A stretch of 50,534 nt of DNA from Syntrophobacteraceae bacterium (GTDB lineage Bacteria > Desulfobacterota > Syntrophobacteria > Syntrophobacterales > Syntrophobacteraceae), in assembly GCA_031292215.1 (NCBI GenBank), contig JARLHO010000083.1, forward strand, positions 1 through 50,534, written 5' to 3'. Position 1 is the stretch's first letter. Each line of letters starts with the position of its first letter. Positions 27,673-50,323 of the stretch are shown one piece after another. A model generated the notes under the pieces. That model was not told the DNA's origin, made no database searches, and worked only from the letters and a program-made list of their open reading frames with translations. The position numbers and the translations under genes were made by a program.

Positions 27673-28833
27673 GTGAACGCCGAGGAAAACCCGCGACAGG
27701 AGCTTCCAACCGAGCGTCCACTCCAGGTCTGCCTGGATCGGTCCGAAGTTGAACCGGAGGACAAAAAAAGTGATGCGGTCATTACAAGACCTTTCGATCC
27801 TGCTCTCATTAGGGTCGAACCAAAATTGATGACCATGGACCTTCTCATCACGCGCATGAGACAAGATGAAATTGATCTGATGCCTGATTTCCAGCGCCGC
27901 GATGATATATGGGGAGAGGCTGCTCAGAGCCGATTGATCGAATCATTACTAATCCGTATTCCATTACCCGCCTTCTATATGGACGCGACGAACGAAGACT
28001 GCTGGCTTGTTGTCGACGGACTGCAGCGGCTTTCGACATTGAAGCGTTTCGTCATTGAAAAAAACCTGAAGCTAACTGGACTGGAATTCCTTACCCAACT
28101 CGAAGCGAAAGGGTATGACGATCTACCTAGGACTTTTCGAAGAAGAATCGACGAAACCCAAGTCACCATCTACCTGATTGAAAAGGGCACGCCCCCTGGC
28201 GTAAAATTCAACATATTTAAGAGAATTAATACCGGCGGCGCCCCGCTGACGGCCCAGGAGATTCGCCACGCATTGAACCAGGGCGCGGCGACAAGGCTTT
28301 TGGCCCGCCTGGCCGACTCAGATGCCTTCAAAAGTGCAACAGACAGGGGGGTCAACCCGAAGCGAATGGACGATCGAGAGTGTGTCCTGCGCTTTCTTGC
28401 CTTTGTAATCACCCCGTACACTGAATATCCTGTAAAAAAGGACTTTGATAGTTTTCTCAGTGATAAAATGGCGGAGATAAACGCCATGAACGATGTTGAG
28501 CAGCAGAGACTTGAACAAAGATTCAAAAGAGCAATGATCGCTGCAAATGTGATCTTTGGAGACGAGGCGTTCCGAAAAAAGTACAGCCCTGACGCCCCGA
28601 GATTCCCCATTAATAAGGCCATTTTTGAGTCATGGTCGGTCAACCTGGATAGCCTTGCCGAGGAAGACCTTGTCAGAATCGTCTCTAGAAAGTCGCAAGT
28701 GGTGGAAGGCTTCATGAAACTCATGCACAACAGGGATTTTGAGGCAGCAGTTTCCTCGGGCACAGGAGACGTGAAGAAAGTGCAGAAAAGATTCGAGTCA
28801 ATCGGAAATTTGCTTGCCGAGGTCATGAGATGA
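27673..28833 (+). CDS. DUF262 (GmrS/ParB-like) domain protein
   Basis: The 386-aa protein carries the DUF262 nuclease-like motif set: LMPDFQRRDDIWGEAAQSRLIESLL, LVVDGLQRLSTLKRF (the conserved DGQQR-type motif) and FNIFKRINTGGAPLTAQEIR. DUF262 is the N-terminal half of GmrSD type IV restriction enzymes and also occurs alone in phage-defence gene clusters. The GmrD HNH half (DUF1524) is absent; the C-terminal 150 residues are helical and unrecognised. GTG start with ggaggg about 8 bases before it. Its TGA overlaps the ATPase start by ATGA, so the first two cassette genes are coupled. Confidence 0.85.
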   Translation: MNAEENPRQELPTERPLQVCLDRSEVEPEDKKSDAVITRPFDPALIRVEPKLMTMDLLITRMRQDEIDLMPDFQRRDDIWGEAAQSRLIESLLIRIPLPAFYMDATNEDCWLVVDGLQRLSTLKRFVIEKNLKLTGLEFLTQLEAKGYDDLPRTFRRRIDETQVTIYLIEKGTPPGVKFNIFKRINTGGAPLTAQEIRHALNQGAATRLLARLADSDAFKSATDRGVNPKRMDDRECVLRFLAFVITPYTEYPVKKDFDSFLSDKMAEINAMNDVEQQRLEQRFKRAMIAANVIFGDEAFRKKYSPDAPRFPINKAIFESWSVNLDSLAEEDLVRIVSRKSQVVEGFMKLMHNRDFEAAVSSGTGDVKKVQKRFESIGNLLAEVMR

Positions 28834-29930
28834 TCCACCATCTTCGACTCCGTAACTTCAAGTGCTTTCGAGAGGTTGATCTGCCCTTCGGCGCCATCAC
28901 CGTATTATCGGGATCAAACGGCACGGGAAAAAGCAGCGTGCTGCAAGCCATGCTATTGCTCAGGCAATCTTATCAATTGGGTCTGCTGAACACGAGAGGG
29001 CTCGCCCTGAATGGCGATCTCGTCCGGCTTGGATCTGGTAAAGACGCATGGTTTGAGGGCGCAGAAGAAGATGTCATATCATTTGAGATGTCCATCGAGG
29101 GGGGCCTGGCCACTAAATGGAGTTTTCGCATCGAGGGACAATCTGATGTGCTGCCGCTGAACCAACCCCCGGAGGATCGAATTTTGGAAGGGGGGTTGTT
29201 TGGCAAGTCATTTCATTATCTCCAGGCAGAGCGAACTGGTCCTCGAACTTCCTTCGCTATGTCTGATTCCGAGGTCCTGAGAAACAGGCGACTTGGGACA
29301 CGAGGTGAGTACTGTGCCCATTTCCTGGCCGCGTTCGAAAGAGAAGACATTCAGGTCCAGCGGCTGGCCCACCCGGACGCCGTGTCTTTCGGGCTTCGCG
29401 ATCAGGCGGAGGCGTGGATTTCCTGTGTCAGCCCGGGCACGCGAATCCACGTAAGTCCACAGCCTCGCATGGACCTTGTGAACCTTGAATTTTCGAAGGT
29501 GACCGGAAGCTACGTCAGCGACCCTTACAGAGCGACCAACGTCGGTTTTGGCTTGAGCTACACCCTGCCCATCTTTGTAGCGGCTCTTTCTTCCCAGCCA
29601 GGCGGTCTGCTGATGATTGAAAACCCCGAGGCACACCTACACCCGGCAGCCCAGGTAAAAATGGCCGAGTTCCTCGCGCTGGCAGCGGCTGGAGGAATCC
29701 AGGTCATAATTGAAACACATAGCGATCACGTGCTGAATGGAGTTAGACTTGCAGTCCATTACAATGTCCTGGCCCCTCACGACGTGCAACTCCATTTTTT
29801 CAGAGCGTCTCGGGAAGAGGTTGGTACTGAGGTCGTTTCACCAAAGCTAAACAGCAGAGGGCGTATCGATCATTGGCCTGAAGGTTTCTTCGATGAGTTT
29901 GAGAAGAGCCTTGACGAGCTCCTGGATTGA
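28830..29930 (+). CDS. AAA ATPase, DUF3696 / OLD-like
   Basis: The 366-aa SMC/OLD-type ATPase has Walker A at about 27-36 (SGSNGTGKSSV), a Walker B with the conserved ENPEAHLHPAAQ near residue 265, and IIETHSDHVLNGVRLAV as H-switch. It ends in the DUF3696 signature RIDHWPEGFFDEFEKSLDEL. No TOPRIM domain is fused. Such ATPases are usually sensors or motors that license a partner effector in anti-phage systems. The DUF262 gene (ATGA overlap) and the third gene (13-bp gap) sit on either side, so the three act as one operon. Confidence 0.88.
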   Translation: MIHHLRLRNFKCFREVDLPFGAITVLSGSNGTGKSSVLQAMLLLRQSYQLGLLNTRGLALNGDLVRLGSGKDAWFEGAEEDVISFEMSIEGGLATKWSFRIEGQSDVLPLNQPPEDRILEGGLFGKSFHYLQAERTGPRTSFAMSDSEVLRNRRLGTRGEYCAHFLAAFEREDIQVQRLAHPDAVSFGLRDQAEAWISCVSPGTRIHVSPQPRMDLVNLEFSKVTGSYVSDPYRATNVGFGLSYTLPIFVAALSSQPGGLLMIENPEAHLHPAAQVKMAEFLALAAAGGIQVIIETHSDHVLNGVRLAVHYNVLAPHDVQLHFFRASREEVGTEVVSPKLNSRGRIDHWPEGFFDEFEKSLDELLD

Positions 29931-29943
29931 TCGGCGGGAGAAT

Positions 29944-30471
29944 ATGGAAATCATTTTCAATGAGCTATCCGCGTGTGGAGATCACAAAAGCACTAATGAT
30001 GCCAGGGAAGGCATGCACCGGTTGGTCGAGGTTGCCAGATCCATTATCCACCAAGGCGGAGACCGAATCATTCGCACCACCGCCGATTTTACGGCCAGAC
30101 AACTCGCTCGCAATTATGGAATTGCCAATTGGTTAAATGACAACACGGTAGATCTCGAAGAACGTATATACATAAAACGGCTCGCTGGAAAGGCCCCATG
30201 GATAGAGGAGTACTTCACGGCTGAAGAAGACAGCCGTGAAAAAATGGTCGAGTTTCTTTTTAAAGGAGATCGAGCCCTTGGACTGGGAGTAGCCTTTTTA
30301 TGGGATGCGCCCGCCGTGACCCTGGACGGCAATGGCAAGTTTAGCTCCGACCCGGCTCAAGTTTCATTGCGGACCCTGGATGAAGACGGCGAGTTTAGCG
30401 ATGAAAATGTCGCGGCGTGTTGCCTATCTACCCTCGCCCAAATCGGCTTACGGGAGCAGTGGCTCCGATGA
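29944..30471 (+). CDS. Third cassette protein, N-terminal part (in-frame stop)
   Basis: This 175-codon frame starts at ATG 29944 (cgggag ribosome-binding site) and ends at a TGA at 30469-30471 after REQWLR. The peptide begins MEIIFNELSACGD, continues with a helical stretch and has no recognised domain. Coding sequence continues in the same frame immediately after the TGA (30472-30897) with no start codon before GTG 30610. That second part belongs to a C-terminal module seen in other defence-associated proteins. The most likely reading is one roughly 318-aa gene broken by a nonsense mutation, or TGA readthrough or a sequencing error. Confidence 0.6.
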   Translation: MEIIFNELSACGDHKSTNDAREGMHRLVEVARSIIHQGGDRIIRTTADFTARQLARNYGIANWLNDNTVDLEERIYIKRLAGKAPWIEEYFTAEEDSREKMVEFLFKGDRALGLGVAFLWDAPAVTLDGNGKFSSDPAQVSLRTLDEDGEFSDENVAACCLSTLAQIGLREQWLR

Positions 30472-30897
30472 CGCGTCCAAACTGAGGTTCGGTCCGGCAA
30501 TGCGCTCTGGAGACGAAAAGATTCGCTTCTCGCCAATCTTATTTTCTGCGGTCCTTCGATCAAACAGTTCCAGGATCTGAATGGACATGAACCCTACTTC
30601 AGGCAGATCGTGAGGCACTTATTTGCAATCGACCGCGCCGTGGCGACTTGGGTTGTCGGAGATTTCTCACTTGGTGGCCTTTCCTGGTCGAAAGAATCCA
30701 CTGAGACGCTCAAACATCCAGAGTATGGCCCAATGAGGAAATTCATTTGCCCCGATGGCCAAGAGCGGACCTTCAGCTATCATACGAAACCGACCGGTGA
30801 CAAGGTGCGGGTACACTTCTTCCCGGTCCCTGAGAAGCGTGTGGCATATATCGCCTATATTGGTCCTCATTTGCCAACGCTCGGATATGGTACTTAG
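30472..30897 (+). pseudogene. Third cassette protein, C-terminal part after in-frame TGA
   Basis: The frame reads on from the TGA without interruption: NALWRRKDSLLANLIFCGPS, FRQIVRHLFAIDRAVATWV, FICPDGQERTFSYHTKP and a terminal YIGPHLPTLG. This WRRKD..L..NLIFC plus CPDGQER..S.H plus YIGPHLP pattern is one I recognise from the C-termini of uncharacterised defence-island proteins; the recognition is from memory. The only in-frame starts are late (GTG 30610) and would drop the WRRKD segment, so it is unlikely to be a separate gene. Confidence 0.6.
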
Positions 30898-30946: not shown

Positions 30947-31000
30947 AAACTATTCATCTTGCAAGGGCCTCTTTTTCACCGGCCAAATACCCCGGCGCCA

Positions 31001-32617
31001 TCACCCCAATAACTGGGTGAAAAAATCGTTTCCCTTGTCGTCTACGAGGATAAAGGCCGGGAAGTCCACGACCTCGATCCTCCAGATCGCTTCCATGCCC
31101 AGCTCGGGGTATTCGAGCGATTCCACCTTCGTGATGTTTTCCCTGGCAAGGATCGCCGCGGCCCCCCCGATCGAGCCAAGGTAGAAACCGCCGTGTTTTT
31201 TGCACGCATCGGTTACCTGCTTGGACCGGTTGCCCTTGGCTATCATGATAAGCGAGCCGCCCTGAGACTGGAATAGATCCACGTAGGAATCCATGCGGCC
31301 GGCCGTGGTCGGCCCGAAAGAGCCCGAAGGCGCGCCCGAGGGGGTCTTTGCCGGGCCGGCGTAGTAGACCGGGTGATCCATTATGTACTGCGGCAACCCC
31401 TCGCCCCTGTCGATCCTTTCCTTTAGTTTGGCGTGCGCGATATCTCTGGCGACCACTATGGTGCCGCTCAAAGACAATTGAGTCTTTATCGGATGTTTGG
31501 ACAGCTCGGCCAGGATGTCTTTCATCGGCCGGTTGAGATCGATTTTAACCACCCCGTGATCGTGTCTGCCGCGATATTTTGCGGGGATGTATTTCCCGGG
31601 GTTGGCTTCCAACGCCTCCAGCCAGATGCCGTCCCGGTTGATTTTTGCCAGGATGTTTCTGTCCGCCGAACACGATACCCCCATCCCCACAGGGCACGAC
31701 GCCCCGTGGCGCGGAAGCCGGATAATCCTTACGTCGAGTGCGAAATGCTTTCCCCCGAACTGGGCGCCGTACCCGGATTTGCGGGCGGCGGCCAAGACCT
31801 TTTCCTCCATCTCGAGATCCCGAAACGCCCTCCCCCCTTCATTTCCACTCGTTGGGAGCTTGTCCAGGTAACCGGTTGTGGCAAGCTTTACGGTCTTTAG
31901 GCACGATTCGGCCGAGGTGCCCCCCACAACGAAGCCCACATGGTATGGCGGACAGGCCGCCGTTCCCAGGGTCTTCATCTTCTCCACGAGAAACTTTTCA
32001 AGGCTTGCCGGGTTTAAAAGCGCCTTGGTTTCCTGAAAGAGCATGTTCTTGTTGGCCGACCCCCCACCTTTAGCGATGAACAAAAATTTGTATTCCGCGC
32101 CCCGGGTGGCGTAGATGTCTATCTGGGCTGGAAGGTTGCAACCCGAATTTTTCTCCTCATACATTGTCAGCGGAACTGTCTGAGAGTAGCGAAGGTTCTC
32201 TTCGGTGTAGGTCGTAAAGACGCCCGAAGAGAGATGCTCTTCATCATTTGCCCCCGTCCACACCTGCTGGCCCTTTTTTGCCACAATCGTAGCGGTCCCC
32301 GTGTCCTGGCAAAGCGGCAGGACGAACTCGGCGGCTATTTCGGCATTGCGAAGCAGTGCCGCGGCCACCCCCCGGTCATTGGGAGAAGACTGCGGGTCAT
32401 CTAGAATTTCCGCCCACGCTTCGATCTGTTTGGGGCGCAAGAGAAAAGACACCTCGCGCATTGCCCGGTTCGCAAGGTATGCAAGCCCCGCCGGATCGAC
32501 CTTAAGGATTTCTTTTCCCTCAAAGCTTGCGACCGACACATAATCTTTGGTCAAAAGTCTATATTCCGCATCGTCTTCCCCGACCGGAAAGGGGTTTTGG
32601 TAACTGAATTCGGCCAT
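31001..32617 (-). CDS. fumA: Fumarate hydratase class I (Fe-S dependent)
   Basis: The 538-aa single-chain class I fumarase interconverts fumarate and malate. The three [4Fe-4S] ligand regions are [23 protein letters not shown] and [16 protein letters not shown]. The C-terminal beta domain includes [25 protein letters not shown] 32617 was chosen (aggag 5-10 bases upstream); an upstream in-frame ATG would intrude on the preceding gene. Class I fumarases are oxygen sensitive and common in anaerobes. It lies 34 bp after the RelA/SpoT-like gene. Confidence 0.95.
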
Positions 32618-49621: not shown

Positions 49622-50323
49622 ATGATCGGCGCACATCATCATCTTCGGGCTTCCTATGTCCTGGCGGGCCTCGTTGTGGGCTTTCTGGTTCTTCATCCCT
49701 ATGTGATGTTTGTCCAGTGGATCATCTCACCTCATCCTCGGGATTTGTGGGATTATCATCTGTTTGGTCCGTTGATGCTTTCCATGGGGATAGCCTTCGC
49801 TCTGTTTGGCGCGATGATCGGTTTGCTGATAGGATCTGCCGTGCAAAGGGGAAAAAGTCTAGTCTTTTCGATAAACGAGCAAGAAAAAAAGGAAATTGCT
49901 CTCAAAGCCGTTTACGATCCTATGGTGACCCTTTCTCATTACCTGCTTAACGCTAACATGATCATTGGCGGCAAAGTGCGCCGTTGCCAAAAAAAAGCAG
50001 GTGAACAGGAAGTTTTCGAATGCCTTGAAGTGATCGAAAAACAGGGGAGAACGATCGATGCAGCGTTGAAGTCCCTGCGCAGCTTGGTTGATGTGAATAC
50101 CGCCGGGCATACATCCGATGGCACGCTTTGGGCCTATGGAGACAATATGTACGGGCAGTCGGAAGACGGCACAACGACCGACCGCTCCAGCCCCGAGCAG
50201 ATAGGCACGGGCAACGGCTGGATGTCCGTATCGGTTGCGGTAGGGATACCGGTTACCCGGCCCCCCCCGCGCAGATCCGTACGTGCGGAATTGCCGCATA
50301 CGGCTCCTACTTCGAGTGACTAG
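49622..50323 (+). CDS. Chimeric two-TM protein with RCC1-fragment tail
   Basis: The frame encodes 233 residues. The first about 160 form a small membrane protein (TM near 10-30 and near 48-72) followed by a coiled-coil/helical stretch, EQEKKEIALKAVYDPM and SHYLLNANMIIGG, that looks like a receptor-like or kinase-DHp-like dimerisation helix. From about residue 162 the sequence switches to RCC1 repeat (DGTLWAYGDN, DGTTTDRSSPEQIG) and finally into antisense group II intron sequence. The native 3' end is missing; the tail is a mosaic. The N-terminal half may still be translated. Confidence 0.55.
   Translation: MIGAHHHLRASYVLAGLVVGFLVLHPYVMFVQWIISPHPRDLWDYHLFGPLMLSMGIAFALFGAMIGLLIGSAVQRGKSLVFSINEQEKKEIALKAVYDPMVTLSHYLLNANMIIGGKVRRCQKKAGEQEVFECLEVIEKQGRTIDAALKSLRSLVDVNTAGHTSDGTLWAYGDNMYGQSEDGTTTDRSSPEQIGTGNGWMSVSVAVGIPVTRPPPRRSVRAELPHTAPTSSD
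50104..50232 (+). other. RCC1-repeat coding fragment
   Basis: This 130-bp stretch encodes one RCC1 (regulator of chromosome condensation) blade: GHTSDGTLWAYGDNMYGQ, then EDGTTTDRSSPEQIGTGNGW, MSVS. In the usual repeat the next residues would be an AG-type start of the following blade; here sequence is interrupted by the intron 3' end. No second blade precedes it, so it is a stray fragment fused to the membrane-protein gene, and probably exon sequence that came with the intron or with a recombination event. Confidence 0.65.

What the first reader, a model, noticed from the sequence alone, without database searches (positions are those of the whole stretch)
30460..30480. In-frame TGA splits the third cassette gene
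Coding signal continues in exactly the same frame beyond TGA 30469-30471, with no alternative start before the conserved WRRKD segment. This could be a nonsense mutation that disarms the system, programmed readthrough, recoding, or an assembly error. A selenocysteine explanation is unlikely because no Sec-like context was seen.
Basis: seen in the sequence. Interest (0 to 1): 0.6.

Follow-up and report, generated by a model that had tools for sequence, protein, structure and literature searches.

The report
Menshen defence effector cut by stop
A three-gene anti-phage defence cassette of a known type (Menshen) carries a stop codon in the middle of its third gene, exactly between the part that plugs into the system and the RelE-like RNA-cutting toxin part, so the bacterium most likely has a disarmed copy; this is probably an ordinary loss-of-function mutation rather than a recoding event.

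Summary
Confirmed: TGA 30469-30471 interrupts one continuous frame, 29944-30897. The cassette is a Menshen (NsnABC) anti-phage system: NsnA 27673-28833, NsnB 28830-29930, NsnC read through the stop; one NsnC profile covers both halves, and each half matches it alone. The read-through model (pLDDT 91) puts the TGA at residue 176, in the linker helix between an N-terminal domain (1-169) and a C-terminal RelE/YoeB/HigB-fold toxin domain (195-312). In 61 aligned homologues the TGA column is variable and polar, never Cys. The genome has selenocysteine machinery and two formate dehydrogenase genes with in-frame TGA, but NsnC lacks the Cys column, redox motif and strong hairpin seen there. The next in-frame start lies inside the toxin domain, so no separate toxin is expected. 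Best reading: a nonsense mutation that removes the effector; a consensus error cannot be excluded without reads. Breaks recur near the same linker in other lineages (another TGA, three frameshifts): weak, post hoc evidence (scan p 0.002-0.03) that truncations keeping the N-terminal domain are tolerated. The system itself is already described.

The parts
27673..28833 (+). NsnA: DUF262 / GmrSD N-terminal (ParB/Srx-like) protein, intact; ends in TGA overlapping the nsnB start
   Evidence: Pfam PF03235 7e-22; PADLOC NsnA 6.5e-142
28830..29930 (+). NsnB: AAA_15/AAA_21 + DUF3696 ATPase, intact (Walker A GSNGTGKS, IENPEAHLHP, ETHSDH); ends in TGA
   Evidence: Pfam PF13175 1e-24, PF12476 8e-15; PADLOC NsnB 1e-116; alignment A1
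29944..30897 (+). NsnC, whole frame read through one in-frame TGA (317 aa)
   Evidence: model pLDDT 91.3, pTM 0.83
29944..30450 (+). NsnC N-terminal domain (residues 1-169), predicted adaptor; intact, kept in the truncated product
   Evidence: model of residues 1-175 alone pLDDT 91.5, pTM 0.87; fold comparison weak: best Z 3.4, a PIN domain (ZC3H12C) at Z 3.0
30451..30525 (+). interdomain linker helices (residues 170-194)
   Evidence: secondary structure of the model: helices 164-169, 171-179, 185-190
30469..30471 (+). in-frame TGA at residue 176, in the linker helix
   Evidence: homologue column N16 K11 Q10 E9 S4 R3 D2 A L Y P, no Cys
30526..30879 (+). RelE/YoeB/HigB-fold (BECR) toxin domain (residues 195-312), cut off by the TGA; conserved H280 and R289 are present
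   Evidence: VIA-align: 6n90 YoeB/ParE Z 8.4, 4fxe RelE Z 6.9, 6kml HigB Z 6.0; invariant columns H280, R289
30610..30612 (+). first possible in-frame restart (GTG) after the TGA; residue 223, already inside the toxin domain

Best explanation
The cassette is a Menshen anti-phage system. In an intact system NsnA (DUF262) and NsnB (ATPase) would sense infection and release or activate NsnC, which carries an N-terminal domain joined by a helical linker to a RelE-like ribonuclease toxin domain. In this genome a single nonsense change to TGA in the linker codons makes NsnC end after residue 175: the N-terminal domain is still made, the toxin domain is not, and no start codon can make the whole toxin domain separately. 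The system is therefore disarmed at its effector while NsnA, NsnB and the N-terminal domain stay intact. The lesion looks recent, because no second stop or frameshift has accumulated in the 141 codons downstream. Shown: identity of the cassette, the stop, the domain boundary, the homologue column, the absence of a suitable restart. Inferred: loss of defence, effector role and chemistry, recency.
For: PADLOC NsnA/NsnB/NsnC hits in order. NsnC profile continuous across the stop, each half matching separately. 61 aligned homologues, variable polar residue there, none Cys. Model with pLDDT 91 puts residue 176 in the linker helix; the 12 best structural matches of 195-312 are RelE/ParE-superfamily toxins, apart from one (7xbj, rank 10) that aligns over the same stretch but is a longer toxin (Z 8.4-5.2, next row 3.4); two NsnC relatives (L037, L039) carry a Pfam Gp49/HigB domain in that slot (2e-7, 3e-5). 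Restart only at GTG 30610, inside the toxin domain. NsnA and NsnB of the same operon end in TGA, so TGA is a stop here. A second NsnC (L038, Microcoleus) has its own TGA at about residue 195 while sister genes at about 90% DNA identity are open, so such lesions do occur by loss. Published description of the same architecture: PtuZ, PIN-like N domain, helical linker, BECR/YoeB-like RNase (PMC11980606).
Against: No reads or second strain to confirm the base: the window is one contig of a 177-contig assembly and one genome per species gives no strain comparison. The frame beyond the stop is otherwise clean, which also fits an error or a leaky stop. RelE-type activity of the domain is inferred from fold (best Z 8.4; Foldseek alone is not significant), not from an assay.
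Confidence: 0.76

Rival explanations
1. Consensus or assembly error: the organism has a sense codon at this site and NsnC is intact.
For: One substitution, no other lesion in the gene; fragmented assembly (177 contigs); only one copy of the gene and no strain to compare.
Against: NsnA and NsnB in the same contig are intact; other NsnC genes are also broken near this point, including two in isolate genomes (L069, L029). From general knowledge, a lone substitution is not the typical error of a well-covered short-read assembly.
Confidence: 0.13
2. Leaky or programmed UGA readthrough makes a small amount of full-length NsnC, throttling a toxic effector.
For: The downstream frame is kept clean; the downstream product has a toxin fold, for which a low dose could be useful; a second in-frame TGA lies in the same linker region in L038.
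Against: Not conserved: the aligned intact homologues have sense codons, and the L038 stop is at another position with open sister genes. No unusual structure after the stop (z -0.1 to 0.7).
Confidence: 0.07
3. Selenocysteine is inserted at the TGA.
For: The genome has tRNA-Sec (74 bits), SelB (362 bits) and two formate dehydrogenase genes with in-frame TGA.
Against: No homologue has Cys at the column; no redox motif; the hairpin after the TGA is no better than shuffles (-10.9 kcal/mol), whereas the two formate dehydrogenase genes have ART-U-H / ARV-U-H contexts and hairpins of -20.0 and -20.4 kcal/mol.
Confidence: 0.01
4. The gene is naturally split: the N-terminal and toxin domains work as two proteins.
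For: The domains are separable: N-terminal domains with other C-termini (L037, L039, L040, L058, L096) and C-terminal modules on other proteins (G287, G381) exist.
Against: Intact homologues are single proteins; after the TGA the first start (GTG 30610) is residue 223, inside the toxin domain.
Confidence: 0.03

Closest known systems
Menshen anti-phage system (NsnABC; Millman et al. 2022, as cited in PMC10952713)
   Same: All three genes in the same order, each with its best match to the PADLOC NsnA/B/C profile; NsnC full length when read through.
   Different: NsnC carries an in-frame TGA between its two domains.
ptuXYZ operon (Gerdes 2025, PMC11980606)
   Same: DUF262 protein + PtuA-like ATPase + two-domain protein with a helical linker and a C-terminal YoeB-like BECR domain; the architecture matches that of NsnABC, though that paper does not name Menshen.
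   Different: PtuZ is intact there; the PIN-like character of the N-terminal domain is only weakly visible in our search (Z 3.0).
RelE/YoeB/HigB toxins of type II toxin-antitoxin modules
   Same: Fold of residues 195-312 (Z 8.4-5.2).
   Different: Here it is a domain of a larger effector with no antitoxin gene recognised beside it; sequence identity is only 9-17%.

Membership tests
Menshen (NsnABC) | nsnA encoding a DUF262 protein | tested here: met
   PDLC03877 6.5e-142, PF03235 7e-22
Menshen (NsnABC) | nsnB encoding an AAA/DUF3696 ATPase directly downstream | tested here: met
   PDLC03878 1e-116, PF12476 8e-15
Menshen (NsnABC) | nsnC directly downstream, with an open full-length reading frame | tested here: not met
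   Profile matches 3-304/305 but the frame is interrupted by TGA 30469: a disrupted member by descent, not an intact system
Menshen (NsnABC) | protects against phages | not testable with these tools
   needs a plaque assay
RelE/ParE (BECR) toxin superfamily, NsnC C-terminal domain | BECR/RelE fold | tested here: met
   first 12 VIA rows align over residues 194-317, nearly all RelE-superfamily toxins, Z 8.4-5.2, next 3.4; Foldseek alone not significant
RelE/ParE (BECR) toxin superfamily, NsnC C-terminal domain | sequence match to a RelE/HigB family profile | tested here: inconclusive
   none for this protein in Pfam; relatives L037 and L039 match PF05973 in the same slot
RelE/ParE (BECR) toxin superfamily, NsnC C-terminal domain | ribonuclease activity | not testable with these tools
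   H280 and R289 invariant in 45 sequences; catalytic role inferred only
Selenoprotein | host has tRNA-Sec and SelB | tested here: met
Selenoprotein | Cys or Sec at the TGA column in homologues | tested here: not met
   none among about 60 aligned homologues
Selenoprotein | SECIS hairpin just after the TGA | tested here: not met
   -10.9 kcal/mol, z -0.1 to 0.7 against -20 in two formate dehydrogenase genes of the genome

The most novel reading that the evidence does not exclude
Breaks between the N-terminal and toxin domains of NsnC are favoured rather than random: cells under phage-free or autoimmune pressure repeatedly cut off only the toxin domain, keeping an N-terminal fragment that still binds NsnA/NsnB, as an off state (or, with a leaky UGA, as a throttled effector).
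Probability: 0.1. Interest if true: 0.6.

Novelty: new member of a known kind. Interest (0 to 1): 0.27.

Why it matters
It shows how a defence system can be switched off at its toxic effector while its sensor parts stay intact, and that annotation by profile alone would call this Menshen locus present although its effector is cut. If breaks at the linker are truly over-represented, NsnC would be a natural record of the cost of carrying a RelE-type effector, testable in E. coli W, which has an intact Menshen.

Tried and rejected
Close relatives by degenerate-pattern scan with NsnC as query: none confirmed; scanning with an NsnB alignment worked (80 loci). DNA and protein searches of plasmids with the window gene gave nothing or one distant hit. 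The 'TAA inside' reported for L004 (G415) is only the nsnB stop before an intact nsnC. Selenocysteine: rejected on the column and the hairpin, not on absence of machinery. Rfam near the stop: nothing. Exact DNA around the TGA in viral contigs: none. N-terminal domain fold: no clear match (Foldseek E above 0.5, best VIA Z 3.4). A weak PDB sequence match to ARIH1 (E 0.008) was set aside as chance. Strain polymorphism: a related Menshen is in 17 E. coli genomes, in each aligned over the full query in one piece, so no broken copy to compare. The key paper on Menshen domain polymorphism (Li et al. 2025, NAR gkaf357) is not held and is known to me only by its title in reference lists.

Full report
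What is there. The frame 29944-30897 is continuous except for TGA 30469-30471 at residue 176 of 317. It starts with an ATG behind a GGGAG ribosome site, 13 bases after the nsnB stop. Codon-position GC is alike on both sides of the stop (0.59/0.42/0.54 and 0.56/0.44/0.56), and downstream of it the frame has no further stop while the other five frames have 2 to 6.

Identity. The cassette is Menshen: NsnA (DUF262/GmrSD_N; PADLOC 6.5e-142), NsnB (AAA_15/AAA_21 + DUF3696; 1e-116) and NsnC (5e-67, profile positions 3-304 of 305 across the stop). Each half of NsnC matches alone, ending and resuming at profile positions 172 and 176. Both upstream genes end in TGA, so TGA is a stop codon in this operon. 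The genome has one copy, and in the 10 other genomes of the genus no full NsnC was found, only one distant partial match in one of them. The neighbouring fumarase gene is conserved in nine of them at 82-90% protein identity, and the DNA alignments end at window 30999-31013, at the fumarase 3' end, so the cassette lies in a variable stretch.

Homologues. Scanning with an NsnB alignment gave 80 cellular loci and 32 viral-contig loci. Intact NsnC genes are single proteins of about 300-325 aa. In the alignment the residue at the TGA column is N 16, K 11, Q 10, E 9, S 4, R 3, D 2, and A, L, Y, P once each: a variable polar site, never Cys.

Structure. AlphaFold2 with 45 sequences gave pLDDT 91.3, pTM 0.83. 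Residue 176 is in a helix (171-179) between the N-terminal domain and the C-terminal domain. The C-terminal domain (195-312) aligns to YoeB/ParE (6n90, Z 8.4, 85 residues, 2.6 A), YoeB (7.7), RelE (6.9), HigB (6.0) and similar toxins in the first 12 rows (one, 7xbj, is a longer insecticidal toxin aligned over the same stretch); the next row is Z 3.4. Foldseek alone did not reach significance, so the assignment rests on the VIA comparison, on the conserved H280 and R289, on two relatives whose C-terminal slot is a Pfam Gp49/HigB domain, and on the published model of the same architecture, PtuZ (PMC11980606). The N-terminal domain alone is predicted with equal confidence (pLDDT 91.5) but has no clear match (best Z 3.4; a PIN domain at Z 3.0); Gerdes calls it PIN-like without essential catalytic residues.

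What the stop does. It leaves residues 1-175, the complete N-terminal domain, and removes the whole toxin domain. The first in-frame start afterwards is GTG 30610, residue 223, within the toxin domain, so restart cannot supply the whole toxin domain.

Selenocysteine. The genome is able to make selenoproteins: tRNA-Sec 74 bits, SelB 362 bits, and two formate dehydrogenase genes with in-frame TGA in HCART-U-HAP and HQARV-U-HSA contexts, followed by hairpins of -20.0 and -20.4 kcal/mol. NsnC lacks all of that: no Cys column, no redox motif, and a hairpin of -10.9 kcal/mol that shuffled sequences equal (z -0.1 to 0.7).

Other broken NsnC genes. Of 112 loci scanned, 69 hold an intact two-domain gene (60 without any stop in the match plus 9 whose only stop is the terminal one); six besides the window are broken: L038 (Microcoleus, TGA at about residue 195, sister genes L036 and L055 open), L069 (Paenibacillus isolate, frame change at about 191), L097 (Aminicenantes, frame change at about 166), L093 (Marithrix, stop and frame change at about 168; its C-terminal part is of another type), L057 (about 262, near a contig end) and L029 (Spirulina, N-terminal part deleted up to about 190). 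Five of six point breaks (window included, L029 left out) lie within 30 residues; a scan test gives p = 0.0018 (0.027 with a 25-residue window, 0.015 without L093). NsnA is broken less often (about 2 of 84 against 7 of 76, Fisher p = 0.09). These tests were devised after seeing the data, with small numbers and mixed assembly quality, so I treat them as a lead.

Mechanism, with steps marked. Shown: cassette identity, domain layout, position of the stop, homologue column, no suitable restart. Inferred: NsnA/NsnB sense infection and control NsnC; the C-terminal domain cleaves RNA; the truncated allele gives no defence. The most likely event is one nonsense substitution in the linker, recent because nothing else in the gene has decayed. 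A consensus error remains the main rival, at 0.13.

Known or new. The system, its three-gene architecture and the toxin domain of its third gene are described (PMC10952713; PMC11980606), and a paper on Menshen domain polymorphism exists (title only). New here are a locus with the effector cut at the domain boundary and the hint that such breaks cluster there.

Noticed in passing
L035:5596-6517 (Okeania sp. SIO2F4): Downstream of an intact nsnC lie two to three near-identical tandem copies of the toxin-domain module without the N-terminal domain, across an assembly gap; they resemble orphan toxin modules or a recent tandem duplication.
   Followed up: partly
L037, L039, L040, L085, L096, L058, L107, L083: NsnC relatives keep the N-terminal domain but carry other C-terminal parts (Gp49/HigB in L037 and L039, unidentified in the others): swappable effector modules.
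   Followed up: partly
G287:C98 and G381:C41 (L009, L011): The NsnC C-terminal toxin module also ends longer, otherwise different proteins (frames of 528 and 822 aa) in other members of the phylum.
   Followed up: no
window 50234-50308, - strand: Group II intron match at the contig end (Rfam RF00029, 41.2 bits).
   Followed up: no
G000:C173 and G000:C86 (L116, L120): Two formate dehydrogenase-like genes with in-frame TGA in Sec contexts and strong downstream hairpins; the genome is a selenoprotein user.
   Followed up: yes
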